From contig CANMPK010000001.1 in assembly GCA_947499725.1 (NCBI GenBank), positions 124,001-188,000 of the forward strand: 64,000 nucleotides of DNA, written 5' to 3'. This DNA is from an uncultured Paracoccaceae bacterium. GTDB lineage: Bacteria > Pseudomonadota > Alphaproteobacteria > Rhodobacterales > Rhodobacteraceae. The notes beneath the pieces are model-generated. The model saw nothing but the letters and a program-made list of their open reading frames with translations, was not told the DNA's origin and made no database searches. Each line of letters opens with the position of its first letter. Position 1 is the first letter of the stretch. A program made the position numbers and the translations under genes. Below, piece after piece: positions 6,227-24,187 of this stretch.

Positions 6227-7225
6227 TTATGCGGCTTTTTCAATCTCTTGGGGCAGCATCTCGTTGATCAACCCAACCCAAGCCTCTTGAAACGTGTCAT
6301 GGGCAGGGGCCGCCAAAGGCGCTGTGGCGGGCAAACGCCCTCCAATCACCTGACGCAGGGCTTTCACCCAGTCATTCATGCTCTTCCCTTCAACCGCTCT
6401 TGCGCCTTGGTGCAACTGATCCAGCAACCCATCCACTGGGGCCACCAAAACAGGGCGCGAGGCGGCAAGCCCTTCTTGGGCCACAAGCCCAAAGGCCTCC
6501 CAGCGCGAGGGCACACACAGCACGTCAATGGCGGCCATCGCTTGGGTCGGATCATCACAATGCCCTTCCAGCGACACGCGCGGATCTTCCGCAGCCAAGA
6601 CTTCTAGCGTCGCGCGTTCTGGTCCTTCACCGAAGATCTTCAAGCACACATCTGGATCATCAACCTTCGCAAAGGCCTTGATCAACACATCAAACCCCTT
6701 CTGCGTATGCAGTCGCCCGACAGCGCCAATCACCTTGGGCGTCTCAATCGGGGCAGGCACCGCCTCAAATGCGGTCAGATCCACAGCCGAGCGGATCACC
6801 CGCATTTTCTCTTGCGTCACCAACCCGCGTGTCACCAGCCAGCTGCCTTGGGCACGGCTCACCGCCACCACAGAGTCAAACAGCGCGTAGGCCGTGCGCA
6901 ACAAAGTAAAGAAGCGATCGCGCTTTGGCACATTCACCGCTGTGAAGCTTTGCGTGTAGCTATGTTCAACATGGATCAACCGTGCCGTCGGGTGTTTAGC
7001 CCGCAGTGAAATCAACATCGGCAGGCTGCGCCAGCTGACCGTCGTATGAGAGACAATAATATCCGCCTTCAGCGTCGGCGCCACAAAGGCTGTTTTCGCA
7101 ACCTGCACCACCTGATGCTGGGCTTGTGCACGCAGCATCGGGGCATTCAGAATATGATCCACCACGCGCATCACGCCGCCCGGTGTTGTGTCATCAATCA
7201 GGTGAATAACTTTAGCCTGTGTCAT
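6227..7225 (-). CDS. GT4-family glycosyltransferase
   Basis: A 332-residue GT-B glycosyltransferase. The N-terminal Rossmann half begins VIHLIDDTTPGGVMRVV. The C-terminal donor-binding half contains IGAVGRLHTQKGFDVLIKA, IFGEGPERATLEVLA and the GT4 EX7E-like element PSRWEAFGLVAQEGLA. It is cytoplasmic or peripherally membrane-bound, adding a sugar to a lipid-linked intermediate. It is the last gene of the leftward run flippase, GT2, GT2, GT4, starting 45 bases after the previous gene with AAAGGA upstream of the ATG. The sugar and linkage are not predictable from the sequence. Confidence 0.9.
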   Translation of the reverse strand: MTQAKVIHLIDDTTPGGVMRVVDHILNAPMLRAQAQHQVVQVAKTAFVAPTLKADIIVSHTTVSWRSLPMLISLRAKHPTARLIHVEHSYTQSFTAVNVPKRDRFFTLLRTAYALFDSVVAVSRAQGSWLVTRGLVTQEKMRVIRSAVDLTAFEAVPAPIETPKVIGAVGRLHTQKGFDVLIKAFAKVDDPDVCLKIFGEGPERATLEVLAAEDPRVSLEGHCDDPTQAMAAIDVLCVPSRWEAFGLVAQEGLAASRPVLVAPVDGLLDQLHQGARAVEGKSMNDWVKALRQVIGGRLPATAPLAAPAHDTFQEAWVGLINEMLPQEIEKAA

Positions 7226-9167: not shown

Positions 9168-10406
9168 TTACACCTCTTGCTTTTGAAGAATCGGGGTAGG
9201 GGACAATTGCGCGATGGCCGCGCAGCTTAAGATCAAAGTCAGCGTCAGGGCGTAGCCCGTCGCCATAGCGCTCAGCCCATGCGGCGCGGTCAGCACAGCA
9301 CTCACCGCCAGCGCGCAGGTCACAGCCAAGGTCACGCCAAACTCCACTTGCGGACGCCCTTGCAGACGCAGATCCGCTGCGGCGACAGACCAAAGTGTAA
9401 GGGGCAGGGCGCACAGGCACAGGATAGATACCACCGGCACCGCCGCGTCCCAGCCATCACCCAGCAGCAGGGGCACATAGAAGGGCGCGCACACCGCTTG
9501 CAAAATCACGATCGGCGCAATCAATCCAAGGCCGCGCAATGCCATGCTCAGCGCACTACCGTTGCGGGTGGCCAGATGTGGGAATACCACTTTCTCAAAG
9601 GCCGCCACAAAGCTGGTCGCAAGGCTCAGGCCTGCATTAAAGGCCATAAAGTAAACACCCAGACCATCAGCGCCCAGCAAAATCCCAACCAGCAGCTTAT
9701 CCGCATGCAGGCGCATCGCCTTCACCAATTCGATCCCCATCACCGGCACGCCATAACGCACAAAAGGCACAACAGGTGACGGGGAGACACTGCGATCCGG
9801 CGCCCAAGGGCGCAAACGCCGCATCGCAATAAGCCACAATGGGGCTGTCAAAATGCGCGGCAGCACCAGCACCAGTGCAGAGGGAACCACCAGCACCAGC
9901 GCCACCGACAAGAGGTTGGCAGAGAGAATTTGCGCTCCGGCAATCCCAGCCGTTTGGCTCAGTTTACCTTCCCGCATCGCCAACGCTGCCTGAACCAATC
10001 CGCCAGGCATAAACACGTATTCGAGCGCACCAAGCGCAACCAACCCGCCAACCACGGGATGAAACCAAAACGCCAAACCCAAGGCCAGCAACAGCTGCAG
10101 CAGGATCAAAGCGCCCGTAAAACTCCAAAACAAATGATGGGCACGACGACAGATGCTTTCCAGCTCATCGTCTTTCGCAGCAATAATGCGCTGCCCAATA
10201 CCATTCTCAGTCAGACCTTTCAGAATGTCACATACCGCCAAGGCCGCTGCGGCCAAACCAATCTGTTCCACACCTAAGGTGCGCGCCACCATCACCACAA
10301 CGAACAGGCGAGACAGCTTGCTGACGACCTCTGACGCCCCATAGGCCATCAGATGGCGCATAAAGCCGCCCGTCTGTTTTTGTGATGATGTCGCGTGCAA
10401 TGGCAT
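9168..10406 (-). CDS. Wzx-type polysaccharide flippase
   Basis: A 412-residue multispanning protein of the MOP exporter superfamily. It starts MPLHATSSQKQTGGFMRHLM at 10406 after CGGAGA. About twelve hydrophobic helices run throughout, and the N-terminal GASEVVSKLSRLFVVVMVAR resembles Wzx/RfbX proteins, including an early charged Lys/Arg in helix one. It should move undecaprenyl-linked repeat units across the inner membrane. It heads the leftward operon, divergent from the export lipoprotein gene. The shared intergenic region holds the EPS motif at 10502-10530. Confidence 0.85.
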   Translation of the reverse strand: MPLHATSSQKQTGGFMRHLMAYGASEVVSKLSRLFVVVMVARTLGVEQIGLAAAALAVCDILKGLTENGIGQRIIAAKDDELESICRRAHHLFWSFTGALILLQLLLALGLAFWFHPVVGGLVALGALEYVFMPGGLVQAALAMREGKLSQTAGIAGAQILSANLLSVALVLVVPSALVLVLPRILTAPLWLIAMRRLRPWAPDRSVSPSPVVPFVRYGVPVMGIELVKAMRLHADKLLVGILLGADGLGVYFMAFNAGLSLATSFVAAFEKVVFPHLATRNGSALSMALRGLGLIAPIVILQAVCAPFYVPLLLGDGWDAAVPVVSILCLCALPLTLWSVAAADLRLQGRPQVEFGVTLAVTCALAVSAVLTAPHGLSAMATGYALTLTLILSCAAIAQLSPTPILQKQEV

Positions 10407-10501
10407 ATCAATCTCCGTAAATCTGAGATCAGAATGCCGGTTTTCACGCCGTGTCACGTCGGCGCCTTTGGTCAGCTGGCAGAAAAAATGGTGCAAAAAT
10501 G

Positions 10502-10515
10502 ACCCAAACGGATAG
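10502..10515 (-). promoter_or_regulatory. EPS-locus motif, site A
   Basis: Read on the minus strand this is CTATCCGTTTGGGT, identical to site C at 17480-17493. A related GTATCCACCC follows on the plus strand at 10521-10530. It lies between the divergent flippase operon and the export lipoprotein gene. Confidence 0.5.
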
Positions 10516-10570
10516 TCAGAGTATCCACCCAGGGCTGCAATAGTGATGATTTTCGCGCGCTATAGTGTTA

Positions 10571-11806
10571 ATGCTTAGAAAAAAGAAGCAGGTTTTAAAA
10601 GTGACTCGGTTTAAGGCGACCCCGTTCAGCACGCTTATTGCGGCTGCCGTTCTGGCAGGCTGCGCCGCTGTGCAACATCCAAACAACATCGAACCCACCG
10701 AAACAGGACAAGGCTATCAGGCCCAGTACCGCGATGTGGTGACCCGTCAGGAAGACACATTCCTGACCTCGGCCACCATGAACGCCTCGTCCTGCTTGCC
10801 CCTACGCGGCGGCGCTGGCGGCAAAGGCATCGGTGCGCCGATCCTGCTGGGAGAGCGGTTTTCACGAAATGACTTGCTCGATGTACGCATTGCCGACGAT
10901 GAAGATCTCACCGGCAAATACGTCATCTCCCGCGATGGCACGCTGAAACTGCCTTTCCTGAAATCCGTACCTGCTCAGGGTCGGTCTTCAACCGAAGTCG
11001 AGCAATCCCTGCGCTGGGCGCTCACCAATTCTGGCCTCTACGACACCCCACCGTCGATTTCCGTACGCGTGGCAGATTTCGCATCTGTCAGCGTCGGTGT
11101 CTCTGGCGCGGTTTTTGAGCCCCATCAGATCGAGATCGGCGGCGTGCAAGGCGAAGCCATCGACAACAACCGCGCCCAAGCGCTGGGCGCTTCCACCGAA
11201 GCGCGTAATTTGTCCGCCGCCATCCGCGCCGCAGGCGGCGTACGTCCTGATGCTGACCTCTCTGCCATTGAGCTGCGCCGCAAAGGCAAACTCTATAAGC
11301 TTGATCTGCGCGGTGTCTTTGAAGGGCGCGATATGGTGGATGTGATGCTTCTGACGGGCGACACCATCTTTGTGCCCTCGCGCCAGTGTTTCCAAGACGA
11401 TCTGATGCGCCCAAGCCCGATCAGCCCGCCCGGTGTGACCATGTTCTTGTCGAACCTCACACAGCCGGCCACCGGCAACGCACCCTCCGCCATTGGCCGT
11501 GAAGTGCGCGAAATGCCTTATGGCACAAAGTATCTGCAAGCCGTGGTCGACGCCAACTGCGTCGGTGGTCCTCGGGCAACCAGCGCGCACCGCTCTGCCT
11601 TGCTGATGTCTCGCAACCCAGAAACCAAAGTCTCTGTGGTGATCGAGCGTGACATCGAAGACATGCTGCGCCGCGCAGACCGCGACGACTATGATCCATT
11701 CCTTCTGCCAGGCGACGCCGTGGCTTGTTACGACAGCACTGTCACCAATATCGCCGAAGCAGCCCGTGTCTTGGGTCTGATCACTGTGGGCGCTGCGCTG
11801 AACTAA
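10571..11806 (+). CDS. Wza-like polysaccharide export outer-membrane lipoprotein
   Basis: About 411 residues. The N-terminus has a lipoprotein signal ending in the lipobox LAGC (STLIAAAVLAGCAAV), so the mature protein should be anchored in the outer membrane. The poly-export domain lies near residues 90-175 (LLDVRIADDEDLTGKYVISRDG), followed by SLBB-like repeats (VSVGVSGAVFEPHQIEIGG). It would form the export channel for the polysaccharide made by the surrounding genes. The start is uncertain: ATG 10571 is listed, but GTG 10601 gives a more standard signal peptide (MTRFKATPFS). A short hairpin overlaps the stop codon at 11795-11813. No inner-membrane Wzc kinase domain is seen in this locus. 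Confidence 0.88.
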   Translation: MLRKKKQVLKVTRFKATPFSTLIAAAVLAGCAAVQHPNNIEPTETGQGYQAQYRDVVTRQEDTFLTSATMNASSCLPLRGGAGGKGIGAPILLGERFSRNDLLDVRIADDEDLTGKYVISRDGTLKLPFLKSVPAQGRSSTEVEQSLRWALTNSGLYDTPPSISVRVADFASVSVGVSGAVFEPHQIEIGGVQGEAIDNNRAQALGASTEARNLSAAIRAAGGVRPDADLSAIELRRKGKLYKLDLRGVFEGRDMVDVMLLTGDTIFVPSRQCFQDDLMRPSPISPPGVTMFLSNLTQPATGNAPSAIGREVREMPYGTKYLQAVVDANCVGGPRATSAHRSALLMSRNPETKVSVVIERDIEDMLRRADRDDYDPFLLPGDAVACYDSTVTNIAEAARVLGLITVGAALN

Positions 11807-11817
11807 TCAGCGCGCGC

Positions 11818-12792
11818 TTATAGCCCTGCGAAAATCTCTTCCACCAACTCCGTGCTAACGCGCCCATCAGCGGCGCTGCACGGGTTTGGCGCATCATCCA
11901 GAAAATGCGCCACAACGCGCTCGACAAAAGGCTGATGCACATGGGCAGGGTCGGGCAGACTAATCGCTTCGGCCGCGCCATCCACCACCAGCTCAATCTC
12001 GCTCGGGCGAAACAGCCCCATCTTGGCTGTGCCCTTGGTGCCATGCAGCAGGGCATACTCTTCTTCAATCGCAGCCGAATAATGACACAGGCTCGACACC
12101 GTCACCCCGCCAAAATCCGCCAAATAGCTCACGAAATCCTCTGCCGCGTGCAAATCTAAAACCTGTTTCTTCAGCCCCTTGATCTGCGCCGGACGCCCAT
12201 ACACATAACTCAGCCAATCCAGCGTATGGGTCTGCATGTCGACAAAACTACCGCCACCGCCCACGCTCGGATCAATCTTCCAGCTTTGCCCAGAGACATC
12301 ATCCGCCCGCTTAAACTGGCGGACTTCGATTAGGTTCACATCCCCAATCACATCACCCTGCGCAATCTCGCGCAGCGTCTCAAACCTCGGCAAAGCGCGC
12401 CGATAATAGGCCACACTCAGCTTGCGACCGGTCTCTTGCACAGCCGCTTCGATGGCGTCGCATTCTGCCATTGTCAAAGCAATCGGCTTCTCCAGCAACA
12501 CATCCTTCCCAGCCCGTAACGCGCGCGCGGCATAGTCTGCATGGGAATTAGGAGGAGTCGCCACATAAACCGCTGTCACCTCAGGATCATGGATCAAAGC
12601 ATCCGCATCATCCGTGGACCGAGGCACATTGTGCCGCGCCGCATAATCCGCCGCCTTCGCCCCATCGCGTCGCATCACCGACACCAGACGAGACCGCGCG
12701 GCCTTCTGCAAAGCCGGCCCGCTTTTCACCTCGGTCACGTCCCCGCAGCCAATGATCCCCCATTGCACTGCGCCAAACTGTTGTGAAGTCAT
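11818..12792 (-). CDS. Gfo/Idh/MocA-family NAD(P)-dependent oxidoreductase
   Basis: A 324-residue protein. The N-terminal Rossmann domain starts WGIIGCGDVTEVKSGPA and contains the family lysine motif LLEKPIALTMAE. The C-terminal alpha/beta domain includes DMQTHTLDWLSYVYG. Family members oxidise or reduce sugars, inositol or nucleotide sugars. Its place among polysaccharide genes suggests a role in making a precursor sugar, but it could be an unrelated dehydrogenase. The start at 12792 is supported by AAAAGGGAGAG. It is convergent with the export lipoprotein gene, with an 11-base gap, and follows the kinase gene in the same direction. Confidence 0.85.
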   Translation of the reverse strand: MTSQQFGAVQWGIIGCGDVTEVKSGPALQKAARSRLVSVMRRDGAKAADYAARHNVPRSTDDADALIHDPEVTAVYVATPPNSHADYAARALRAGKDVLLEKPIALTMAECDAIEAAVQETGRKLSVAYYRRALPRFETLREIAQGDVIGDVNLIEVRQFKRADDVSGQSWKIDPSVGGGGSFVDMQTHTLDWLSYVYGRPAQIKGLKKQVLDLHAAEDFVSYLADFGGVTVSSLCHYSAAIEEEYALLHGTKGTAKMGLFRPSEIELVVDGAAEAISLPDPAHVHQPFVERVVAHFLDDAPNPCSAADGRVSTELVEEIFAGL

Positions 12793-12844
12793 GATGCTCT
12801 CCCTTTTGAAGGCATCTAACAATCAACGCGCTTCAGTGTACAGC

Positions 12845-15367
12845 TTAGCCCACCAAAGCCGCGCGATCTTTGTCCCAAGCGGCTTTTGCCTCGGCAATCA
12901 AATCGGTCAAATCAGGGTCGCCCTCGGTTTTGCCAGCGCGTTCCAAAGCCGCCAAAGCCGCGTGATAGCCCTTGGCGCCAAACATCGACGCGGTCGAGCT
13001 GATCTTATGACAGCGCGCCACAACCTCATCGCGCGGCGCATCCACAGACAACCACTCAGACAACTCATCCGCTTCACCCAGGAAACGCTCTAGAAACGGC
13101 TCGTAGTTATCGCCCAGCATCAACTGCGCCTCACTTTGCGGCGCAGCCTTGCCCACAACCACATCGCGCCCAAACACCGCGCTGCCCAACGCCGCGCGCA
13201 TTTCGTCAATCTGCACAGGCTTGCCAATAAACCCATCCATCCCGTTTCGACGGAATTTCTCGGTCTCTTCCGGCAATACATTGGCCGAGAAGGCAAAAAT
13301 CGGAGTATCTTGCGCCTGAGGGATCTCATCGCGAATGCGTTTTGTCGCCTCAAGCCCGCCCAAACGCGGCATGTTGATATCCATCAGGATCACATCAAAC
13401 ATCGCCTTATGCGCCCAATCGATGGCCTCAAGCCCATCCTGCGCCCAGGTCACATTGTGCCCTTCGTTCTTCAGCATCTTCTCGACGACAAAGGCATTCA
13501 TGTCGTTGTCTTCCACCAGCAAAATTTCAAGCTGGCGCAGTGTTTCATCGCGCTCGATGTCGCTATCAATCGAAACAGGCCGCGCGCCTTTCACCAAAGG
13601 CAAACGCACCCAAAACACACTGCCTTCCCCCAAGGTGCTTTCCACACCAATCGAGCCATCCAGTAATCCAACAAGCCGTTTCGCAATCCCCAGCCCAAGG
13701 CCCGTGCTGTCGATCATTCCACCCGGACGGGCCGAGGTTTCAAAATCTTCAAAAATGCGTTCCAGATCGCCCTCGGCGATCCCAATGCCCGTGTCGATAA
13801 TGCGAAATTCGACGAGCGGTACACCGGTCTCATCACCGATCTGCTCAAGTTCAATATCGATCCGGCCATTTTCGGTGAACTTGATGGCATTGCCCACAAG
13901 GTTCATCAAGATTTGCTGGATGTGATCGCGGTCGCTCTGCACCCAATCCATTGCGGGTCCCATCCATTGCCAACTCATGGCCGTGTTGCGGTTCTCGGCT
14001 TGGCTACTCTGGGCATCGACAATCTCTTGCACCAACCGCGCCAAATGAAAGGTCTCATCGCGCACAGCCACACGGCCGCTTTCAAATTTGGCAATGTCCA
14101 AGATCGCATTCACATGGCCCATCAACTGACGGCCTGAAATATCCATATTGCCTGTAAACTGCGCCTGTTCCTTCGACAGCCGCGTGCCGCCCAGCAGTTG
14201 CAGGTTCCCGAGCAAGCCACTTAATGGCGTGCGGATCTCATGGCTCATCACGGCCAGAAACTCTGCCTTAGCCTTTTCGCCCGCCAAAGCCGCATCCCGC
14301 GCCTCGCGCAATTCCTGCTCGGCTTCCACCTGTGCAGAGATATCCCGCAAGAAGGCAATGATGATCTCGCCATCCTCGCCCATGCCGCTTTCCAAGGCCA
14401 ATTCCACCGGAAACAAGCTGCCATCAGCACGGCAGGCTTCGATCCGAATGCGCCCATGGCCCACCAGCTTTTTCTGCCCCGTGGCCAACATGCGCCGCAT
14501 TCCTTCGGCATGAGCCTCACGCAGGGCAGGGGGCACGATCAGCTCGCCAATGTTCTTGCCCATAATATCGGCCATCTTATAGCCAAACATCTTCTCTGCG
14601 GCGGCACTGAAATCCAACACATTGCCGTGGCGATCCGACACGATCACCCCGTCCAAAGAGGTCGACAGAATCGTTTCCAAATGCGCATTGGCACGCGTCA
14701 GTTTCTGACCGCGAAGTTCGCTATGGCGGTTCGCATTGCGCAAATACAGCGCCAGCACGATCAAAAGCCCCATCAACAACAGGGTCGCGCCAGTGAGCTG
14801 CAACAAGGTCTCTGACAGTCGCGCCCGAAGACCATCATTGGCCTCAGCAAAATAGGACAGGCCAGACGCATAAAGCCCCCGCACAATCGGCGTTAACGCT
14901 TCAGAGCGTTCGATCAATGCGGGTAAAGCCGTAACCAGATCAGCGTCTGCGCCGTCAATGAAAGGGGCGGTTTCGGTCAGATAGGCATCAATCGCCTGAT
15001 CGGCCACGCTAAAACTGTCTTGATCCCGCGCGCCGGAAAAAACAGCCCCATGCGCGATGATGTCATGGCGACTAAAGAACACATCAAAGTCTTTGCGCAG
15101 AGTCCGTAAATCCTCAGCCGAGCCAGACTGCGCCTTGTTCAGGCTCATCTGATAACCCAAAAATTCGCTTTCCACCTGCGACAGGGTCCATTGGACTGAA
15201 TCCGTGCGCGCCGCGCGGAGCTCTGACAGGTCTTCTAAAACACTGCGTGCCAAAATACCGATCAGTACGATGCACAGCAGCGCAAAGCTCGGAACAATCC
15301 ATGCCTTTGAAAATGTAATACTAAAACGGCTTTCGCCTGAGTCTGTTTGGTCCGTGGCCAAGGTCAC
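12845..15367 (-). CDS. Hybrid sensor histidine kinase with REC and HPt domains
   Basis: An 840-residue inner-membrane kinase. Transmembrane helices at about 25-43 and 190-209 enclose a ~145-residue periplasmic sensor. A PAS domain follows (about 230-345). HisKA carries the phospho-His376 (VMSHEIRTPLSG), and the HATPase domain has the N box ILMNLVGNAIKF and glycine loops DTGIGI and GLGLGIAKRL. The receiver domain has Asp663 (LMDINMPRLGG). A C-terminal HPt has His787 (ARCHKISSTASMFGAKG). The start codon is GTG at 15367 with a weak ribosome site. It follows the SUOX-like gene by 16 bases. The nearby LuxR-type regulator is the likely phosphate acceptor via the HPt domain. Confidence 0.93.
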   Translation of the reverse strand: MTLATDQTDSGESRFSITFSKAWIVPSFALLCIVLIGILARSVLEDLSELRAARTDSVQWTLSQVESEFLGYQMSLNKAQSGSAEDLRTLRKDFDVFFSRHDIIAHGAVFSGARDQDSFSVADQAIDAYLTETAPFIDGADADLVTALPALIERSEALTPIVRGLYASGLSYFAEANDGLRARLSETLLQLTGATLLLMGLLIVLALYLRNANRHSELRGQKLTRANAHLETILSTSLDGVIVSDRHGNVLDFSAAAEKMFGYKMADIMGKNIGELIVPPALREAHAEGMRRMLATGQKKLVGHGRIRIEACRADGSLFPVELALESGMGEDGEIIIAFLRDISAQVEAEQELREARDAALAGEKAKAEFLAVMSHEIRTPLSGLLGNLQLLGGTRLSKEQAQFTGNMDISGRQLMGHVNAILDIAKFESGRVAVRDETFHLARLVQEIVDAQSSQAENRNTAMSWQWMGPAMDWVQSDRDHIQQILMNLVGNAIKFTENGRIDIELEQIGDETGVPLVEFRIIDTGIGIAEGDLERIFEDFETSARPGGMIDSTGLGLGIAKRLVGLLDGSIGVESTLGEGSVFWVRLPLVKGARPVSIDSDIERDETLRQLEILLVEDNDMNAFVVEKMLKNEGHNVTWAQDGLEAIDWAHKAMFDVILMDINMPRLGGLEATKRIRDEIPQAQDTPIFAFSANVLPEETEKFRRNGMDGFIGKPVQIDEMRAALGSAVFGRDVVVGKAAPQSEAQLMLGDNYEPFLERFLGEADELSEWLSVDAPRDEVVARCHKISSTASMFGAKGYHAALAALERAGKTEGDPDLTDLIAEAKAAWDKDRAALVG

Positions 15368-15383
15368 CTACCGATGCAAAAAA

Positions 15384-15884
15384 TTAACGAACAATCTCTA
15401 TCGTATTAAGCTGCCAAACAGAGCGCGCGTAAATGGTCTGTGTGCGAAATTTTGCATGACTGTCATATGGATACATAAGCCAAACCGGCCCTTTGCCCCG
15501 CCGCGACATCGGCGCGCCGTCCATTTCAAGGGCCAAAATCGGCCCATCCTCATCTTCGGCGGGCACAGGCAGGCGAACCGCATAGTCGTTGATCGCCGTC
15601 GCAATCACCTCATCTGCCGTTACATTTAAGTGCTTCAGCAGCTCTTTTAAGCAAACGCCGCGAAACTCATGCACCCCATCTGTCCAAATCGTACTCGTTT
15701 CGAAACTCTCTTGATCAAGCGCTTGCAGCGCCGCCATCGACAACATGAACGGCTCTTGGCTCGATTGCACAATTTTTAGAACGGCAGGGGCCTCCGCATC
15801 GGTTTGCGCTTTGACCCACCCCGTCATCAAAGCAAGTAGCCCCATGACAAAAATCGTATAACGTAGGAAACTGAAAACATACAT
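15384..15884 (-). CDS. Exported SUOX-fold (molybdopterin-domain-like) small protein
   Basis: A 166-residue protein. A signal peptide (FVMGLLALMTGWVKAQ) precedes a single domain resembling the oxidoreductase molybdopterin-binding fold. Family-like features are HEFRGVCLKELLKHLNV, INDYAVRLPV and GPVWLMYPYD. In sulfite oxidase and YedY relatives the cofactor cysteine lies at the start of the fold; here that stretch reads STIWTDG, without cysteine. Catalysis with molybdenum is therefore doubtful and a binding or sensing role is more likely. It sits immediately upstream of the hybrid kinase and probably shares its transcript, so it may be a periplasmic partner of the kinase sensor domain. That partnership is inference. 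Confidence 0.7.
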   Translation of the reverse strand: MYVFSFLRYTIFVMGLLALMTGWVKAQTDAEAPAVLKIVQSSQEPFMLSMAALQALDQESFETSTIWTDGVHEFRGVCLKELLKHLNVTADEVIATAINDYAVRLPVPAEDEDGPILALEMDGAPMSRRGKGPVWLMYPYDSHAKFRTQTIYARSVWQLNTIEIVR

Positions 15885-15904
15885 GGTGCGCTCCTTTCAC
15901 AAGA

Positions 15905-15929
15905 AACATGCCCCAAAGCGGGGCATGTT
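15905..15929 (-). terminator. Hairpin after the PGT fusion gene
   Basis: AACATGCCCC and GGGGCATGTT are perfect arms with an AAAGC loop; leftwards the hairpin ends in TTTCTT. It should end transcripts of the gene finishing at 15972. It also lies in the leader of the SUOX-like/kinase pair, so it could attenuate read-through. Confidence 0.6.
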
Positions 15930-15953
15930 GCGTGATAGCAGGCGGCTAGCGCC

Positions 15954-15967
15954 CTATCCGTTGGGGT
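15954..15967 (+). promoter_or_regulatory. EPS-locus motif, site B
   Basis: CTATCCGTTGGGGT matches the motif with one change and sits 70 bases upstream of the SUOX-like/kinase pair, next to the stop codon of the fusion gene. Confidence 0.45.
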
Positions 15968-15971
15968 AGGA

Positions 15972-17342
15972 TTAGTAAGCGCCACGCCCAGACAGCACCG
16001 CGCGGAAGGTCAGCCAGATCAAGATCATGTCCAACAGCACCGATTTTGATTGCGCATAGGCCAGATCCATCTCCACCATCTGATCAAACCCAATGTCCGC
16101 CCGACCAGACACTTGCCACAACCCCGTCAGCCCCGGTTTTACAGCAAGGCGACCTAAAGCGCGGTTCGGATAGGCGGCCACTTCTTCAGCCAAAGCCGGA
16201 CGTGGGCCCACAATCGACATATCGCCCTTTAGAACATTCAGGATTTGCGGCAGCTCATCCAAAGAATAGCGACGCAGCAAACGACCCACTCGCGTCACAC
16301 GCGGATCATTCTTGGCCTTAAAACAAACCCCTTCACGGTCAGAAGTTTTCAGCAAAGCCGCCCGTCGCGCCTCAGAATCCGTCGCCATAGAGCGGAACTT
16401 ATAGATCGTGAACGGTTTGCCATTCTTCCCAACGCGAGTCTGAGTGAACAGGGGCGAGCCTTTGCTTTCCAAACGAATGGCAAGCGCGACCATCATCAAG
16501 GGCAGGAACAGAGCAGTCAGTGCGCCCAGGCTCAGGCCAATATCCATCATGCGCTTTGGCAGAGCATGGGGTTGGCGTTGACGCATGGCATAGGCAGCAG
16601 CCCGCGCCATAAAGGTGAAATTACCAATCAAATAGCGCTGCGCCATGCGGCGGGGCTCCATCAACAGACGCCAAGCCCATTCTGATTTCATCCGGCGCAC
16701 CAGCTTTGGCGCGCGGCGCACATTGCCCGCCCAGAAATCAAACAGCCCGCCAACTGACAAGCAAATGCGCGGCGTCAGCTCGTTGAAATGACGGTCGAGC
16801 CACATTTCCTGCATTGGCACGCCCATGGCGACCAGCAGAATATCTGCGCCAGAAGCATTGATCGCCTCAACCGCGTTCTTTTGCCCCTCGTACCCATCGC
16901 GGGTACCTGCAATGCGCAAATTCGGCTCTTGCTCTGAAATCATCTTGGCCGCCCGCGCCGCAGTTCCGGCTTTGCCCCCAAACAGAAAGACACTCATCCC
17001 TTTACGTGCAGCCAGCTTCAAAAGTTCAGGCGCCAAATCCGTTCCATTTAGGTTTTCGGTGATCTCTTTACCATCCATCTTCGCAGCAAGCTCAACGCCA
17101 ATCCCATCCGGCAGCACCATATCAGCCCGTGCCAAAGCCGCTCTGTAGTGAACGTCCTTCGCAGCGATATTTGCGCAATGCGCATTCAAGAAAGACACGT
17201 TACGACGCCCCGCGCTCAGAATGTTCTGCGCAACCTGCGTCATCGACCCTTGGGTCAAGCGATGGCCCATAACAGTAATCTCGGGAAAAACAGCACTGGT
17301 TTCGGCTGTTAAAAGGGAAGGGTGGAACGCTTGGAAGGTCAT
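15972..17342 (-). CDS. WecG/TagA glycosyltransferase fused to sugar phosphotransferase
   Basis: A 456-residue fusion. Residues 20-230 are a GT26 WecG/TagA/CpsF enzyme: LNAHCANIAAK, the catalytic region VLPDGIGVELAAK with Asp79, NGTDLAP, and LLVAMGVPMQEMW. After a linker, residues 262-456 are a monotopic phosphoglycosyl transferase (WcaJ/PssY type). That half has a KRMMDIGLSLGALTALFL membrane helix, KFRSM, the Asp-Glu pair in YSLDELPQILNVL, and VGPRPALAEEV. The C-terminal part should load the first sugar phosphate on undecaprenyl phosphate, and the N-terminal part the second sugar. The gene is monocistronic between two motif-bearing promoter regions. It probably starts the repeat unit for the whole locus. 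Confidence 0.92.
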   Translation of the reverse strand: MTFQAFHPSLLTAETSAVFPEITVMGHRLTQGSMTQVAQNILSAGRRNVSFLNAHCANIAAKDVHYRAALARADMVLPDGIGVELAAKMDGKEITENLNGTDLAPELLKLAARKGMSVFLFGGKAGTAARAAKMISEQEPNLRIAGTRDGYEGQKNAVEAINASGADILLVAMGVPMQEMWLDRHFNELTPRICLSVGGLFDFWAGNVRRAPKLVRRMKSEWAWRLLMEPRRMAQRYLIGNFTFMARAAAYAMRQRQPHALPKRMMDIGLSLGALTALFLPLMMVALAIRLESKGSPLFTQTRVGKNGKPFTIYKFRSMATDSEARRAALLKTSDREGVCFKAKNDPRVTRVGRLLRRYSLDELPQILNVLKGDMSIVGPRPALAEEVAAYPNRALGRLAVKPGLTGLWQVSGRADIGFDQMVEMDLAYAQSKSVLLDMILIWLTFRAVLSGRGAY

Positions 17343-17479
17343 AGGCTTTCTCCTGTTGGCTGCCTCAGGAGTGCCGCATTTCGCTTAACCTTTCTTTAAT
17401 CCTTTAGGCGGAATGAAGGGGCGTTTGTTTCGCAAATGTACGGAAAGATAGGAAAATATCGAAAAGAGACTAAGCAAAC

Positions 17480-17493
17480 CTATCCGTTTGGGT
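17480..17493 (+). promoter_or_regulatory. EPS-locus motif, site C
   Basis: CTATCCGTTTGGGT lies in the 251-base region between the divergent fusion glycosyltransferase gene and the response-regulator gene, about 114 bases before the regulator start. Confidence 0.5.
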
Positions 17494-17593
17494 GGAGGAT
17501 TAACCAGAAGTTTCCCCTTTTCGGATCCGCTTTTGGTCATAAATTATATTCATATTTAAGGGGCGAATGACTTACCGAAGTAAGGACGTTGTA

Positions 17594-18208
17594 ATGAGAG
17601 TATTAATCGCGGATGACCATGAACTGCTGCGCGACGCGCTAGTAGCCTTCATGGAAAACGAAGAAAACATGGAGACCCACACAGCGAAAGATTTGGCAGA
17701 AGCCTGCGCGCTGCTCGATGGGGACTACACTTACGATCTGGTTTTGTTGGATTACAACATGCCAGGCATGAATGGATTGGAAGGACTGAAAACCGCCTCG
17801 GAACGAAACGGGGTGCATCGCGTTGCCCTAATGTCCGGAGAGGCCACACGCGAAATCGCGGAACAAGCGCTCGATATGGGAGCCATTGGTTTTGTCCCGA
17901 AAACCCTACCGGCCAAATCTCTGGTCAACGCCATCAAATTTATGGCGATGGGTGAAAAATACGCACCGCTGGAATTCATGACAGCAGAGCCAGAGCCAAA
18001 CAACCATCCCCTGTTGTCCGGCCTGACAGAGCGTGAAACCCAAATGCTGCGCGGCTTGACCGAAGGCAAATCCAACAAAGAGATCGCACGCGATCTGGAA
18101 TTGTCCGAACCAACGGTAAAGCTGCACGTGAAGACCCTGTATCGCAAACTGGGCGTGGCTAACCGCACTCAAGCGGCCCTGATCGCACGCGACCAAGGGG
18201 TATTCTAA
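17594..18208 (+). CDS. LuxR/NarL-type response regulator
   Basis: A 204-residue regulator. The receiver domain is at 1-120 (VLIADDHELLRDAL, phospho-Asp in VLLDYNMPGMNG, then MSGEAT and FVPKT). A LuxR-type helix-turn-helix is at about 140-200 (LTERETQMLRGLTEGKSNK, EPTVKLHVKTLYRKLGVANR). It is a DNA-binding transcription regulator. ATG 17594 with TAAGGA seven bases upstream is preferred; an in-frame ATG at 17567 is possible. It lies 117 bases before the chain-length gene and beside the locus's hybrid kinase, so it is the probable output of that kinase. Motif sites A-D are its best candidate targets. Confidence 0.93.
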   Translation: MRVLIADDHELLRDALVAFMENEENMETHTAKDLAEACALLDGDYTYDLVLLDYNMPGMNGLEGLKTASERNGVHRVALMSGEATREIAEQALDMGAIGFVPKTLPAKSLVNAIKFMAMGEKYAPLEFMTAEPEPNNHPLLSGLTERETQMLRGLTEGKSNKEIARDLELSEPTVKLHVKTLYRKLGVANRTQAALIARDQGVF

Positions 18209-18209
18209 C

Positions 18210-18223
18210 CTATCCTTTTGGAC
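18210..18223 (+). promoter_or_regulatory. EPS-locus motif, site D
   Basis: CTATCCTTTTGGAC is the most divergent copy. It starts immediately after the regulator stop codon and 103 bases before the chain-length gene's first codon end. Confidence 0.4.
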
Positions 18224-18325
18224 CAAGGGCATCTCGTATGTCCTTGGGTCCTGTCTAATAGCGTCCTCTGAAAGGCCCGCTCCCCCATCTACCGTTAACC
18301 AAGATTTTCTTGAGGTAGAAAACCC

Positions 18326-19789
18326 ATGGCCTTTCAAAGCGACGCATTTCCAACGCAACCACCTTATCAAAGCAATGCCGCCTATCTGACACGGCTCGAT
18401 AAGCTTTTGAAAAAAGGCCGCCCACATGAACCGGGCTATCTGATCAAACGCTGGATCCGCTACGGTCTGGTCTTCTCACTCTGGAGCGCAGGTGTCTGGG
18501 TGCCGATCACGGGCTACCTAACATCCACACCTCCAAGCTATACCTCACATATGTCGCTGATCCTGCCGGGCTCTGGTGCCTCGTCATCGGTCAACATCGA
18601 CAGCATTGGCCAAGCCAGCAGCCACGCCAGCTCTGCCTTTGCCAATAATTCTGTGAGCCCAACGCAAACCTACAAACGTCTGATCCGGGCAGACCGCATC
18701 CTAGATGCCGCCGCTGCCACTCTGGGAACAGACCCCAAAGCCCTGCCGCGCCCAAAAGTCACGCTGGTGGATCAAACCGGCCTGATCCATGTGGAAATCA
18801 CCGGCGGCAGTGCCGATGAGGCGCGCGATCGCAACCAAGCTGTTCTGGACGCCTTCTTTTCCGAAGTCGAAGCCTTGCGCACCGATGATCTGAACGTGCG
18901 CGAACAAGGGGCGGTGCGTGCCATCGAAGAATACCGCAACTCCGTTCTGGCCAATCGCAACGCGGTTTCGACGCTCCAAAACGAAACGGGCTTCCTGTCA
19001 CGCGATCAATTCGCCGCCCAAGTGGCCGTGAACGATGAACGCCAAGCCAGCAGTTTCACCCTCAAAGCCAAACTGGATGAAAAAACCGCCTACGTGGCCT
19101 CGCTCGAAGCCCGACTGGGCCTCAGCGCAGAACACGCTGCCCGTGCGCTGGACCTTTATTCAGATCAAGAATACCTCGCGCTTGTGGCCGACGTCGCCGA
19201 CAAAGCCGCAGGTCTGGCAGAGGCCCGCGCCCGCTACGGCAGCAACCACCCACGCCGCCGCGAAGCCGAACAGGCCTATATCCAATCGCAAGAGGCCACA
19301 TTGCGCGCGGCCATGTCGATCACTGCGCTGCCCCGTGCCATCGCCGCGCGCCTAAACGTCTCGCAATTTGGCGACCGCACCCAATTGCTGGCCGAACTGC
19401 TGCGCGCCGAAGCAGACCGCTCTGGTCTGTCCGCGCAATACAATACGCTCAGTCAAAGCGTTGCGACCGAGAAATCCCGCCTTGAACGCGCCAGCCGCGC
19501 CGCGGCGCAACTGGAAGATTTGCAACGGGATTTCCAAGTGGCTGAAGCCGTCTTTGCCTCTGCTATCGCCCGTGCGCAATCGTCTAAAACCGATGTCTTC
19601 GCATCTTATCCGCTGGTGCAAGTGCTGGAAAACCCAAGCTTGCCAGATGGACCAAGCTCGCCTCGCCGAAAACTTGCCATTGTCGCAGGGGCAGGGGCCA
19701 CAATGCTGATCCTCATGGCGCTCACGCTGGGCTGGGTGCGCCGCGGCCTGATCCGCTGGCTGATCGGCCAACGCAAAGACGAAGACTAA
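18326..19789 (+). CDS. Wzz/GumC-like polysaccharide chain-length determinant
   Basis: A 487-residue inner-membrane protein with the Wzz layout. One helix lies near residues 50-70 (IRYGLVFSLWSAGVWVPI). A large periplasmic region follows with long coiled-coil stretches (about 165-410, including LRDQ-like heptads and RSGLSAQYNTLSQSV). A second helix near 450-470 (LAIVAGAGATMLILMALTLG) leads to a short basic tail. There is no C-terminal tyrosine-kinase domain, so this is the copolymerase part only. It sets chain length together with the Wzy-like gene that starts 13 bases downstream. The ATG follows GAGGTAG. Confidence 0.88.
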   Translation: MAFQSDAFPTQPPYQSNAAYLTRLDKLLKKGRPHEPGYLIKRWIRYGLVFSLWSAGVWVPITGYLTSTPPSYTSHMSLILPGSGASSSVNIDSIGQASSHASSAFANNSVSPTQTYKRLIRADRILDAAAATLGTDPKALPRPKVTLVDQTGLIHVEITGGSADEARDRNQAVLDAFFSEVEALRTDDLNVREQGAVRAIEEYRNSVLANRNAVSTLQNETGFLSRDQFAAQVAVNDERQASSFTLKAKLDEKTAYVASLEARLGLSAEHAARALDLYSDQEYLALVADVADKAAGLAEARARYGSNHPRRREAEQAYIQSQEATLRAAMSITALPRAIAARLNVSQFGDRTQLLAELLRAEADRSGLSAQYNTLSQSVATEKSRLERASRAAAQLEDLQRDFQVAEAVFASAIARAQSSKTDVFASYPLVQVLENPSLPDGPSSPRRKLAIVAGAGATMLILMALTLGWVRRGLIRWLIGQRKDED

Positions 19790-19802: not shown

Positions 19803-21104
19803 ATGAACGAGTGTTCCCCTCAAAACCCCGCAGAAAAACTCTGCTACAAGGCGATCGTCTACACATGGCCGCTCTATGCGCTGGGCGCGCTCTATGTCAG
19901 CGGCCCTGTGTTGGGCTGGCTGTTAGGCGGGCTCGCGGTCATTGCCGGCTACCTCGGCCCCGCCATGCGCCCAGACCTGCGCCCCCATCCGATTCCGCCT
20001 GCCACATGGGCGTGGATCATCGGCATGGGCCTGATGCTGCCCATCCTTTGGATCGGCCACGTCAATTGGGCTTTCCCCATGACAACCACCATCCGCTCCA
20101 GCATCGGCTGGGCCAAAGGCTGGGCGCTGATGGGGCTGTTCCCCCTCGCAGGGGCCGTGCTGCCCATCCGCCGCGCCATTCTTGTGCGCGGTCAATGTGT
20201 GCTGGGCCTGACCGTGCTCTGTGTGGCGCCCTTTCTATTGGCCGCGCCGTATATTGGCCTGCCAGAACGTATCTTTACCTCACCGTTCAAAGTGCTTGGT
20301 GGACCGGGCCCAGAATATTTCACGGTCTTTCTGTTCACCTATGATCCCGCCACATGGACCCCACGCTGGCAGTTCTTCGCCCCATGGTCCCCCTTCGCCG
20401 CGCTTCTGGGCGTGATGATGGTGCTCTTTGCACTGGAAGAAAAAGAACTGAAATGGCGCAGCTTTGGAATCGCCGCAGGCACGCTGATGGTGCTGGCGTC
20501 TAAGTCCCGCATGGGGCTCGTGGGCCTTGTGGTCTGCACAATCCCCCCACGCCTTCTGGGCCTGATGGGCCGCCGCTGGGCATGGATGCTCTTGGCCGGC
20601 CTCACCGCCAGCCTCGCCATGACCGCTGACCGCCTGATCAACGGCGCCACCAGCGCCATCGCCACTTTCAAAAACGCCCGCGCCGACAGCACCCGCGTGC
20701 GCGCCACGCTGCAACGCATCGCCGAGGAACGCTGGTGGGAAGAGGCCATCTGGTTCGGCCACGGCCGCCCAGCCCCTGGAGGGCACATCGTTGAATACAT
20801 GCCAATCGGCAGCCATCACACATGGTACGGCCTACTGTTCGTGAAAGGCGTCACAGGTTTCGCGGCGCTTCTCTTGCCGCTGCTCTTCCAGATGCTGCTG
20901 GCACTGGTGGATTCCATTGCCTCCAGCCGAGGCCGTCTGCCGCTGGGCATCCTCTTGGTGATCGTCCTGCTGTCCTTTGGCGAGAACATCGAGATCGAGG
21001 CTTACCTGCTTTGGCCAGGCCTCATGATGCTGGGCATCCACGCCCGCGAAATGGCAGAGGCGCCCTTTGACAGCCTCATGCCCGCGCAGCCACAGCCTGC
21101 GTGA
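19803..21104 (+). CDS. Wzy-like polymerase / O-antigen ligase family protein
   Basis: A 433-residue multispanning inner-membrane protein with about ten to twelve helices. The family-typical large periplasmic loop comes late (about residues 290-340, with FGHGRPAPGGHIVEYMP) and is followed by SHHTWYGLLFVKGVTGFAAL, the conserved His-containing end of the WaaL/Wzy domain. It should join lipid-linked repeat units in the periplasm. It is the last gene of the rightward pair with the chain-length gene. Its stop codon directly abuts that of the convergent phosphatase gene, with no room for a separate terminator. Confidence 0.85.
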   Translation: MNECSPQNPAEKLCYKAIVYTWPLYALGALYVSGPVLGWLLGGLAVIAGYLGPAMRPDLRPHPIPPATWAWIIGMGLMLPILWIGHVNWAFPMTTTIRSSIGWAKGWALMGLFPLAGAVLPIRRAILVRGQCVLGLTVLCVAPFLLAAPYIGLPERIFTSPFKVLGGPGPEYFTVFLFTYDPATWTPRWQFFAPWSPFAALLGVMMVLFALEEKELKWRSFGIAAGTLMVLASKSRMGLVGLVVCTIPPRLLGLMGRRWAWMLLAGLTASLAMTADRLINGATSAIATFKNARADSTRVRATLQRIAEERWWEEAIWFGHGRPAPGGHIVEYMPIGSHHTWYGLLFVKGVTGFAALLLPLLFQMLLALVDSIASSRGRLPLGILLVIVLLSFGENIEIEAYLLWPGLMMLGIHAREMAEAPFDSLMPAQPQPA

Positions 21105-23150: not shown

Positions 23151-23183
23151 GCTATCCTAAGCACCTGACGTGCTTTGATAAAA

Positions 23184-23267
23184 TGGTGGGCGACCCTGGA
23201 ATCGAACCAGGCGTGAGTCGCCTCGAGGGAGTTACAGTCCCCTGCCACACCTTGCGGCCTGTCGCCC
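23184..23267 (-). tRNA. tRNA-Tyr (GTA)
   Basis: An 84-base class II tRNA with encoded CCA. The acceptor arms GGGCGAC and GTCGCCC pair fully, the anticodon GTA reads from 23235-23233, a long variable arm is present and the T loop is TTCGATT. It lies between the AT-rich nuclease-like gene and rlmB. No partial copy of its 3' end was noticed near the nuclease-like gene. Confidence 0.97.
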
Positions 23268-23395
23268 ACTTGTTCGGCATCGCTGCTGAACGTGAGGGGC
23301 TGATTACAGACGTCTCACGGGGGCGTCAACAAGAAAATCGCTTGAAGATCACGCGTCTTTCTTACATTGGTAGCCCTCACCTTCAAATAAGGCTT

Positions 23396-24187
23396 ATGAC
23401 GATGAAAAAACCTAAGTGGGTCGTGGAAAAAGAACAGTCCAAAAAAGCAGCAGCGGCAGAGACCGTCTGGCTGTTCGGCCTGCATGCGGTGCGCGATGCG
23501 TTGCAAAACCCAGCGCGTGAAAAACTCCGCCTGATCGTCACACGCAATGCGCAAGATAAGCTGGCCGAGGCCATCGAAGCCTCTGGGATGACACCAGAAA
23601 TGGTGGATCCGCGCAAATTCCCGAAGGTGCTAGACCCGCAATCCGTCCACCAAGGCGCCGCGCTTGAGGTAAAACCGCTCAATTGGGGCAGCCTGCAAGA
23701 CCGTGCGATTGGCGGCGACGCTGACCTGCCGCCCCGTCTGGTGCTGCTGGACCGCGTGACAGACCCGCATAACGTCGGCGCGATTCTACGCTCTGCCGAG
23801 GTGTTTGGCGCGCAGGCTGTGATCGGCACCCGCCACCACTCTGCGCCTGAAACCGGCGCTTTGGCAAAAACCGCCTCTGGCGCGCTAGAACGCCAGCCTT
23901 ACCTGCGTATGCGCAACTTGGCCGACACAATCATCGAGCTGCAAGGCATGGGTTACATCGTTCTGGGCCTTGATGGCGAAGCCGAGATGAGCATCGAAGC
24001 CGCAATTGACGGCAAACGCGACCGCCCAATCGCTTTGGTGCTTGGCGCTGAAGGCCCGGGCCTGCGTCAGAAAACCAAAGAAACCGTGGATCACCTCGTG
24101 AAAATCGACTTCGCCCGCGGCTTTGGCTCGCTCAACGTGTCCAACGCGGCAGCCGTTGCGCTTTATGCGGCCCGCGGCAACGGCTAA
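23396..24187 (+). CDS. rlmB: 23S rRNA 2'-O-ribose methyltransferase RlmB (SpoU/TrmH family)
   Basis: A 263-residue SPOUT enzyme that methylates the ribose of G2251-type guanosine in 23S rRNA using S-adenosylmethionine. The N-terminal substrate-binding part is WLFGLHAVRDALQNPAR. The trefoil-knot motifs are DPHNVGAILRSAEVFGA (motif 1), LVLGAEGPGL (motif 2) and FGSLNVSNAAAVALYAA (motif 3). The frame is open upstream into the tRNA, so ATG 23396 (with ATAAGG upstream) is the first credible start. A shorter TrmH-type role cannot be excluded, but the N-terminal extension favours RlmB. Confidence 0.92.
   Translation: MTMKKPKWVVEKEQSKKAAAAETVWLFGLHAVRDALQNPAREKLRLIVTRNAQDKLAEAIEASGMTPEMVDPRKFPKVLDPQSVHQGAALEVKPLNWGSLQDRAIGGDADLPPRLVLLDRVTDPHNVGAILRSAEVFGAQAVIGTRHHSAPETGALAKTASGALERQPYLRMRNLADTIIELQGMGYIVLGLDGEAEMSIEAAIDGKRDRPIALVLGAEGPGLRQKTKETVDHLVKIDFARGFGSLNVSNAAAVALYAARGNG

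What the first reader, a model, noticed from the sequence alone, without database searches (positions are those of the whole stretch)
10502..18223. One motif in four promoter regions of the polysaccharide locus
CTATCC(G/T)TT(T/G)GG(G/A) occurs at 10502-10515 (minus strand), 15954-15967, 17480-17493 and 18210-18223. These sit upstream of the flippase/export lipoprotein, the SUOX-like/kinase pair, the fusion transferase/response regulator, and the chain-length gene. No further copy was noticed elsewhere in the window. The resident LuxR-type regulator is the obvious candidate to bind it, giving an autoregulated locus.
Basis: partly seen in the sequence, partly recalled or inferred. Interest (0 to 1): 0.7.

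Follow-up and report, generated by a model that had tools for sequence, protein, structure and literature searches.

The report
Conserved polysaccharide-locus operator of a response regulator
A short palindromic DNA switch sits in front of the regulator, sensor and assembly genes of a surface-sugar locus, and the same switch is kept at the same places in many related marine bacteria, which points to one self-regulated control circuit for making the cell's sugar coat.

Summary
Confirmed and strengthened. The four motif copies are real (4 exact matches; 0.02 expected in shuffles); the whole genome holds six. Each copy is one half plus part of the other half of a palindrome, CCTATCC-N4-GGATAGG. 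Unseeded motif finding without imposed symmetry on 40 response-regulator upstreams recovers it. A matrix trained only on regulator upstreams finds sites >=13 at other junctions of the locus in relatives: SUOX|WecG 34 of 34, RR|Wzc 40 of 43, Wza|Wzx 25 of 37; five within-operon or convergent junctions have 1 of 222. Across 295 genomes, one per genus, the exact palindrome goes with the LuxR/NarL-type regulator (Fisher p=1.4e-17). It persists at sugar clusters whose regulator sits on another contig. Best reading: regulator dimers bind operators, often with a half-site 20 bp further on, and control their own gene, the SUOX-like/hybrid-kinase operon, and initiation, polymerisation, export and flipping of the polysaccharide. 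In this species two of the four copies (10503, 18210) keep only one good half. Binding, sign and signal are not shown. Ten searches of the held library listed no report of it.

The parts
10498..10517 (.). operator in the divergent Wzx/Wza promoter region; left half decayed (AATGACCC-AAAC-GGATAGTC)
   Evidence: exact motif; palindrome score 8.7; orthologous junction has a site >=13 in 25 of 37 relatives
15952..15971 (.). operator upstream of the SUOX-like/kinase operon and just downstream of the WecG-PGT gene (CCCTATCC-GTTG-GGGTAGGA)
   Evidence: score 21.1; orthologous junction 34 of 34
15944..15949 (-). candidate second half-site (CTAGCC) 20 bp further towards the SUOX-like gene
   Evidence: position read; in relatives the half-site enrichment at +20 bp is z 13.8
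17478..17497 (.). operator in the divergent WecG-PGT / response-regulator promoter region (ACCTATCC-GTTT-GGGTGGAG)
   Evidence: score 18.8; orthologous junction 37 of 44
18208..18227 (.). operator between the response-regulator stop and the chain-length gene; right half decayed (ACCTATCC-TTTT-GGACCAAG), overlapping a stem-loop
   Evidence: score 7.3; orthologous junction 40 of 43; stem-loop
17567..18208 (+). NarL/FixJ-type response regulator (receiver + LuxR HTH); the conserved part begins at the ATG at 17594
   Evidence: Pfam Response_reg 7e-23, GerE 1.7e-22; alignment of 82 regulators
12845..15367 (-). hybrid histidine kinase (PAS, HisKA, HATPase, receiver; a C-terminal Hpt match below the Pfam cut-off)
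   Evidence: Pfam
15384..15884 (-). SUOX-like protein without a conserved cysteine, in tandem with the kinase
   Evidence: Pfam Oxidored_molyb 9.6e-7; no column with >10% Cys in 66 aligned proteins
15972..17342 (-). WecG-type glycosyltransferase fused to an initiating sugar-phosphate transferase
   Evidence: Pfam
18326..19789 (+). chain-length-type protein (orthologue gives only a sub-threshold GNVR match)
   Evidence: no Pfam hit for the window protein; orthologue
19803..21104 (+). O-antigen ligase/polymerase-type protein (named after the annotated neighbour in the same place on a plasmid)
   Evidence: no Pfam hit; annotated plasmid locus
10565..11806 (+). Wza-type polysaccharide export protein
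   Evidence: Pfam Poly_export
9168..10406 (-). Wzx-type flippase, first gene of the glycosyltransferase run
   Evidence: Pfam Polysacc_synt_3

Best explanation
The motif is the DNA-binding site (operator) of the resident NarL/FixJ-type response regulator. The full site is CCTATCC-N(W)(W)N-GGATAGG, in front of the SUOX-like gene usually with a further half-site 20 bp (two helical turns) closer to the gene, so that two regulator dimers could bind one face of the DNA. The hybrid kinase, encoded in tandem with a SUOX-like protein, phosphorylates the regulator. The regulator then controls its own gene, the SUOX-like/kinase operon, and the transcription units for polysaccharide initiation (WecG-PGT), chain length/polymerisation, export (Wza) and flipping/glycosyl transfer (Wzx). 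Shown by comparative sequence: the operator, its positions, its association with the regulator. Inferred: that this regulator binds it, that phosphorylation matters, that the net effect is more likely activation with positive feedback (about 60:40), and that the SUOX-like protein feeds a periplasmic signal to the kinase.
For: Unseeded EM on 40 of 80 regulator upstreams, with no symmetry imposed, gives CCTATCCGAA.GGATAG; 26 of 40 held-out upstreams score >=10 against 0.7 in dinucleotide shuffles. With symmetry imposed, 34 of 40 against 0.85 in mononucleotide shuffles. The matrix trained only upstream of the regulator finds sites >=13 at untrained junctions: SUOX|WecG 34 of 34, RR|Wzc 40 of 43, Wza|Wzx 25 of 37. 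Control junctions: HK|SUOX 0 of 63, Wzc|Wzy 0 of 42, GT2b|Wzx 0 of 40, HK|Wza 0 of 35, GT2a|GT2b 1 of 42; these gaps are shorter (75-158 bp on average against 254-845). Reversed-letter control: 1 of all 399 junctions. In the 80 loci plus window 177 hits score >=16, training sites included, against 1.65 for permuted matrices. An annotated Sulfitobacter faviae plasmid found separately has its four best scores (21.0-22.9) at the four expected places, next best 8.3. Exact palindrome and regulator: 64 both, 7 palindrome only, 77 regulator only, 147 neither, p=1.4e-17; 1 of 7 genomes with the reversed pattern has the regulator. In three genomes with the sugar cluster on another contig (G014, G145, G270) 6 of 6 cluster junctions have a site and so does the RR/SUOX junction. 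Tandem half-site at +20 bp before SUOX, z 13.8. The paralogous RR2 has the palindrome upstream in G000, G004, G005, G006.
Against: No binding or expression data. Two of the four window sites have one decayed half and are not significant by palindrome score. 77 of 141 regulator-bearing genomes have no exact palindrome, a strict criterion. 10 of 80 regulator loci have no site >=13; 8 of these 10 have neither a SUOX-like nor a sugar-assembly gene labelled in the locus. No fixed -35/-10 was found relative to the site, so the sign of control is open.
Confidence: 0.88

Rival explanations
1. A different transcription factor, not the resident regulator, binds the palindrome and merely co-travels with the locus.
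For: Seven genomes have an exact palindrome without the regulator at E<=1e-45; binding was not tested.
Against: The palindrome sits next to the regulator even where regulator and SUOX-like gene are direct neighbours (RR|SUOX 17 of 19) and next to its paralogue; co-occurrence p=1.4e-17. Of the 7 palindrome-only genomes, loci of three were looked at (G273, G240, G152): none had a gene of this locus within 1.5 kb, as chance matches would show.
Confidence: 0.07
2. The paralogue RR2 (49% identical) binds the same operator, so both regulators share or compete for the sites.
For: In G000, G005 and G006 the SUOX2/RR2 junction carries the palindrome, and in G004 a one-mismatch copy lies 138 bp upstream of RR2; the recognition helices are similar (KLHVKTLYRK vs KLHVRSLCKK).
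Against: Most of the 141 regulator-bearing family genomes list one match only at E<=1e-45. This adds to, rather than replaces, the main reading.
Confidence: 0.35
3. The inverted repeat acts as an RNA hairpin (leader element or terminator), not as a DNA operator.
For: A perfect copy could form a 7-bp stem with a 4-base loop; one copy overlaps a stem-loop at 18220-18252. Read in the direction of the gene, G-U pairs exceed the reciprocal A-C in two of three slots (25 vs 13 upstream of the regulator, 7 vs 2 upstream of SUOX).
Against: Base identity, not just pairing, is conserved; a half-site recurs in direct orientation at +20 bp; single sites lie between divergent genes; two window copies have lost pairing but keep CTATCC; in the RR|Wzc slot G-U does not exceed A-C (11 vs 14); no Rfam match in 9500-18800.
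Confidence: 0.03
4. Chance or compositional recurrence in intergenic DNA.
For: With 1 mismatch allowed, genome counts are close to the reversed control (31 vs 26).
Against: Exact copies 4 vs 0.02 expected; positional conservation across genera.
Confidence: 0.005

Closest known systems
NarL/FixJ-family response regulators (NarL, VraR, DevR/DosR, RcsB)
   Same: Receiver plus LuxR-type HTH; nearest solved chains are VraR 5hev (1e-21) and NarL 1a04 (2.4e-21). Half-site TATCCNW resembles the NarL heptamer TACYYMT (recalled, not from a call).
   Different: Here the halves form CTATCC-N4-GGATAG, with a second half-site 20 bp away before SUOX; NarL's known arrangement is heptamers 2 bp apart (recalled). 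The RcsB half-sites given in PMC5829831 (TTAGGAA/TCTAAGA; passages) differ.
DbfQ-DbfR-DbfS of Vibrio cholerae
   Same: A small periplasmic protein encoded beside a two-component system that controls biofilm (PMC12714742, abstract and outline).
   Different: Here the accessory protein has a SUOX-like domain and the kinase is a hybrid; no sequence relation was tested.
EmbRS and BmfRS of Rubrivivax gelatinosus
   Same: LuxR-type response regulators with cognate kinases that control exopolysaccharide and biofilm, EmbRS negatively (PMC3684757, abstract, outline and passages).
   Different: In the passages seen, embRS lies beside photosynthesis genes and no SUOX-like gene or operator is mentioned (the word promoter occurs 0 times).
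Rcs phosphorelay / RcsB control of capsule
   Same: Phosphorelay with NarL-type regulator controlling a surface polysaccharide (recalled).
   Different: Different kinase set, operator and accessory proteins (recalled).

Membership tests
NarL/FixJ-type response regulator | receiver domain plus LuxR/GerE HTH | tested here: met
   Pfam Response_reg and GerE above cut-off
NarL/FixJ-type response regulator | acidic pocket, phospho-acceptor Asp and Lys of the receiver | tested here: met
   ADDH, LDYNMPG and PKT blocks lie in conserved stretches of the alignment of 82 regulators (80 relatives, window, RR2)
NarL/FixJ-type response regulator | phosphorylation-dependent dimer binding to an inverted repeat | not testable with these tools
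   Only the inverted repeat itself is shown
NarL operator | two heptamers TACYYMT spaced 2 bp (recalled) | tested here: not met
   conserved site is CTATCC-N4-GGATAG
LuxR quorum-sensing regulator | autoinducer-binding domain | tested here: not met
   only receiver and HTH domains reported above cut-off
SUOX/YedY molybdoenzyme | conserved cysteine that ligates molybdenum (recalled) | tested here: not met
   no alignment column with more than 10% Cys in 66 SUOX-like proteins
SUOX/YedY molybdoenzyme | Oxidored_molyb domain | tested here: met
   9.6e-7, 29 bits against a cut-off of 24, covering model positions 66-144 of 169
DbfQRS-like module | periplasmic protein binds the kinase sensor domain | not testable with these tools
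   gene order only
Wzx/Wzy-type polysaccharide locus | flippase, polymerase-type, chain-length, export and initiating-transferase genes together | tested here: inconclusive
   flippase, export and initiating transferase by Pfam; chain-length rests on a sub-threshold GNVR match and polymerase-type on a plasmid annotation

The most novel reading that the evidence does not exclude
A cysteine-less, catalytically dead sulfite-oxidase fold serves as the sensor partner of a widespread three-part signalling module (SUOX-like protein, hybrid kinase, NarL-type regulator). The module controls sugar-coat assembly through phased operators and is rewired lineage by lineage. In the genus of the window the operator also sits between uvrC and pgsA-moaD-moaE, possibly linking the circuit to phospholipid and molybdopterin synthesis, and in this species upstream of a sigma-factor/FliK-type operon and, more weakly, of a giant adhesin.
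Probability: 0.25. Interest if true: 0.68.

Novelty: new variant of a known kind. Interest (0 to 1): 0.57.

Why it matters
Surface polysaccharide helps decide whether marine Rhodobacteraceae swim or stick (established knowledge; compare the motility and biofilm role of rhamnose synthesis in PMC12363192, passages), and I found little on its transcriptional control. A conserved operator with a likely cognate regulator lets the regulon be read from sequence in members that carry it, gives ready-made reporters and footprint targets, and points to a SUOX-like protein as a candidate signal input. It also shows one circuit that seems to be rewired between species (extra operators at the paralogue, at uvrC|pgsA-moaDE and at a flagellar-type operon).

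Tried and rejected
Flagellar-type target: the palindrome at L010:7149 (25.6) is strong, but no site of comparable score was seen in the loci of the six other Cognatishimia genomes with the 151-aa gene (7 of 9 genomes including this one have the gene; best scores 4.4-12.4). Adhesin target: L009:6352 scores 10.9, a level expected about 42 times per genome, and the adhesin was found in 1 of 9 genus genomes; not claimed.

uvrC|pgsA-moaDE: in 9 of 9 genus genomes a site lies in this junction (8 score 12.5-24.9, G003 only 9.0), close to the uvrC end and about 270-350 bp from pgsA in seven (farther in G003; in G002 about 1.3 kb, with another reading frame of 320 aa between); none of 12 genomes of other genera reaches 9.

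Symmetry: imposed a symmetric matrix; one search repeated the search without it, and the palindrome came out again.

Promoter geometry: searched for -35/-10 at fixed distances; no strong signal except TTG-like at +20 upstream of Wzx, 0.48 of 25. Sign of control left open.

Natural negative control: 1 of 25 genomes with a full-length WecG-PGT fusion lacks the regulator (G086, searches compared by eye); it has no site at Wzx|WecG and one 13.4 hit elsewhere on an 11-kb end of contig. Too few to count heavily.

G251 was first taken as a genome with regulator and sugar cluster apart; it has a further WecG-PGT-like gene in two pieces beside the regulator, so it is left out of the 6 of 6 count. Its cluster on another contig has a site at Wza|Wzx and none at Wzc|WecG.

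Literature: ten library searches. Two returned nothing; of several only the top rows were listed (for instance 20 of 55, 15 of 28, 15 of 86, 12 of 103). In the titles and abstract starts shown I saw no paper on this motif or circuit. Read further: passages of PMC5829831, PMC12363192 and PMC3684757; abstract and outline of PMC12714742 and PMC3684757. PMC5030684 is not held. Many subscription papers are not in the library.

Limits: co-occurrence lists were copied by hand. The 80 loci are the best of 501 relatives. Junction labels come from tblastn with window proteins; only labelled neighbours less than 1200 bp apart were counted, and an unlabelled gene can lie between (for example a nucleotidyltransferase gene between SUOX and WecG). 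Shuffles were mononucleotide, those in 70 and 73 dinucleotide.
Full report
The observation. In the genome (3.15 Mb, window at C1:124001-188000) there are six exact copies; allowing one mismatch gives 31 against 26 for the reversed pattern. So exact copies are concentrated in this locus and near-matches are not in general excess.

What the motif is. One of the two extra copies, at C5:13150, reads CCTATCCAAACGGATAGG, a palindrome. I fetched 80 relatives of the window's response regulator from named records, mostly Rhodobacteraceae (the best 80 of 501 relatives), and looked at up to 300 bases upstream of each. A seeded, symmetric motif search gave CCTATCC-NWWN-GGATAGG with 59 of 80 scoring >=12, against 0.6 in mononucleotide shuffles. 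An unseeded symmetric run on a random half gave CTATCC....GGATAG; 34 of the 40 held-out upstreams scored >=10 against 0.85. An unseeded run with no symmetry imposed gave CCTATCCGAA.GGATAG; 26 of 40 held-out upstreams scored >=10 against 0.7 in dinucleotide shuffles, and the likelihood gain was 298 against 74-86 on three shuffled sets.

Where it sits. The matrix was trained only upstream of the regulator. Run over the 80 loci and the window it gives 177 hits >=16 (training sites included) against 1.65 for column-permuted matrices. Of 205 hits >=13 in the 80 loci one lies inside a labelled gene. Junction counts: RR|WecG 37 of 44, RR|Wzc 40 of 43, SUOX|WecG 34 of 34, Wza|Wzx 25 of 37, RR|SUOX 17 of 19; HK|SUOX 0 of 63, Wzc|Wzy 0 of 42, GT2b|Wzx 0 of 40, HK|Wza 0 of 35, GT2a|GT2b 1 of 42. 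The control gaps are shorter (75-158 bp scanned on average, against 254-845). The reversed-letter control has a site at 1 of all 399 junctions. RR|WecG and RR|SUOX contain the training region; the others do not. All 45 of the 80 loci that hold a sugar-assembly gene have a site; of 25 with SUOX-like only, 23 do; of 10 with neither, 2 do. One site-less case is a Cognatishimia (L073) with an 80%-identical regulator and a kinase but no SUOX-like or sugar gene labelled in its 20-kb locus. A plasmid of Sulfitobacter faviae found through the plasmid collection has its four highest scores at RR|Wzc, WecG|RR, Wzx|Wza and upstream of SUOX (22.9, 22.8, 21.6, 21.0; next 8.3).

In the window itself. Site 15952-15971 scores 21.1 and 17478-17497 scores 18.8; a first-order Markov model gives about 0.5 sites >=18 per genome. 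Sites 10498-10517 (8.7) and 18208-18227 (7.3) keep one perfect half only; by palindrome score alone they are ordinary (about 136 expected per genome at >=8.5 and 293 at >=7). Their reality rests on the exact 13-mer and on their positions. The right half at 18208 runs into a stem-loop at 18220-18252.

Array structure. Upstream of the SUOX-like gene, relatives carry a second half-site 20 bp closer to the gene (mean half-site z 13.8); upstream of Wzx there are weaker extra matches at +20 (z 3.3) and +41 (z 5.3), and other slots show only weak signals near 20-21 bp. This is close to two and four helical turns, as expected for dimers side by side. In the window the equivalent half-site is CTAGCC at 15944-15949, 20 bp from CTACCC (read).

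Who binds it. In 295 family genomes (one per genus) the exact palindrome occurs in 71 and a regulator match at E<=1e-45 in 141. Both: 64; palindrome only: 7; regulator only: 77; neither: 147; Fisher p=1.4e-17; of seven genomes with the reversed pattern one has the regulator (lists copied by hand). In three genomes where the Wzc/WecG-PGT/Wza/Wzx cluster lies on a different contig from the regulator (G014, G145, G270), 6 of 6 cluster junctions examined have a site >=13, and the regulator/SUOX junction has one too (G145 and G270; G014). The paralogue RR2 has the palindrome upstream in G000, G005 and G006, between it and SUOX2, and a one-mismatch copy 138 bp upstream in G004. These facts make the resident regulator, or it together with its paralogue, the likeliest binder. 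Binding itself is inferred.

The signalling parts. The regulator has receiver and GerE domains; the kinase has PAS, HisKA, HATPase and receiver domains and a sub-threshold C-terminal Hpt match, so a phosphorelay to the regulator is the natural route (inference). The SUOX-like protein matches the later part of Oxidored_molyb (positions 66-144 of 169), but no column of 66 aligned proteins has more than 10% cysteine, so the molybdenum-ligating cysteine of SUOX enzymes (recalled) is absent. Its conserved blocks (TiWT.G, AiNDY, RdKGPLW, YsRSIWQLdR) suggest a binding rather than a redox role (inference).

Other possible targets. In the window's genus a palindrome lies in the uvrC|pgsA-moaD-moaE junction: 8 of 9 genomes score 12.5-24.9, G003 9.0; 0 of 12 genomes of other genera reach 9. 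In G000 it scores 17.0 at C3:264388. It lies close to the uvrC end in every case, so the link to pgsA-moaDE is open. The sigma/FliK-type operon site (25.6) has no counterpart of like score in six relatives. The adhesin site scores 10.9 and is not counted as shown.

Mechanism and sign. By a Shine-Dalgarno search, starts lie a median 83 (SUOX, 59 of 63 found), 86 (Wza, 20 of 25), 93 (RR, 44 of 63), 99 (Wzc, 39 of 50), 149 (WecG, 28 of 37) and 64.5 bp (Wzx, 12 of 25) from the site centre. No -35/-10 pair at fixed distance was seen, which fits promoters that need an activator but does not prove it. I put activation at about 60%.

Novelty. In the listings of ten searches of the held library I saw no paper describing this motif or a SUOX-like/hybrid-kinase/NarL-type control of a Rhodobacteraceae polysaccharide locus. 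LuxR-type regulators of exopolysaccharide (PMC3684757) and periplasmic partners of biofilm kinases (PMC12714742) are known in other bacteria, so this is a new variant of a known kind.

Noticed in passing
L212:1177 / G000:C3:264388, with L199-L204, L211, L214: The same palindrome sits in the uvrC|pgsA-moaD-moaE junction, close to the uvrC end, in 9 of 9 Cognatishimia genomes (8 score 12.5 or more, G003 9.0) and in none of 12 genomes of other genera at 9 or more.
   Followed up: partly
L010:7149-7168 (G000:C5): A perfect palindrome (25.6) lies upstream of an operon with a 151-aa protein, a sigma-70-type factor and a FliK-like protein; no counterpart of like score in six relatives.
   Followed up: partly
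L009:1-6255 and 6352-6371: A giant DUF4347/cadherin-like adhesin (at least 2085 aa, running off the contig end) follows an outer-membrane efflux (OEP) gene, with a weak operator copy between them; adhesin found in 1 of 9 genus genomes.
   Followed up: partly
L011:5454-6773: Paralogous SUOX-like/response-regulator pair about 81 kb from the window's regulator, with its own palindrome between the two genes.
   Followed up: partly
L073 (Cognatishimia sp. SS12): Regulator and kinase are present, but no SUOX-like or sugar gene was labelled in the locus and no operator found; the gene after the regulator matches window 23183-24187 (82%).
   Followed up: no
L182, L185: Two Cognatishimia genomes share a palindrome upstream of an AraC-family regulator gene (Pfam on the L206 copy).
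   Followed up: no
L198:4510 (G000:C1:1283511): A further near-palindrome (15.9) upstream of a short gene whose start resembles a MerR-type regulator; not examined.
   Followed up: no
window 18220-18252: Stem-loop just after the response-regulator stop codon, overlapping the right half of the operator at 18208.
   Followed up: partly
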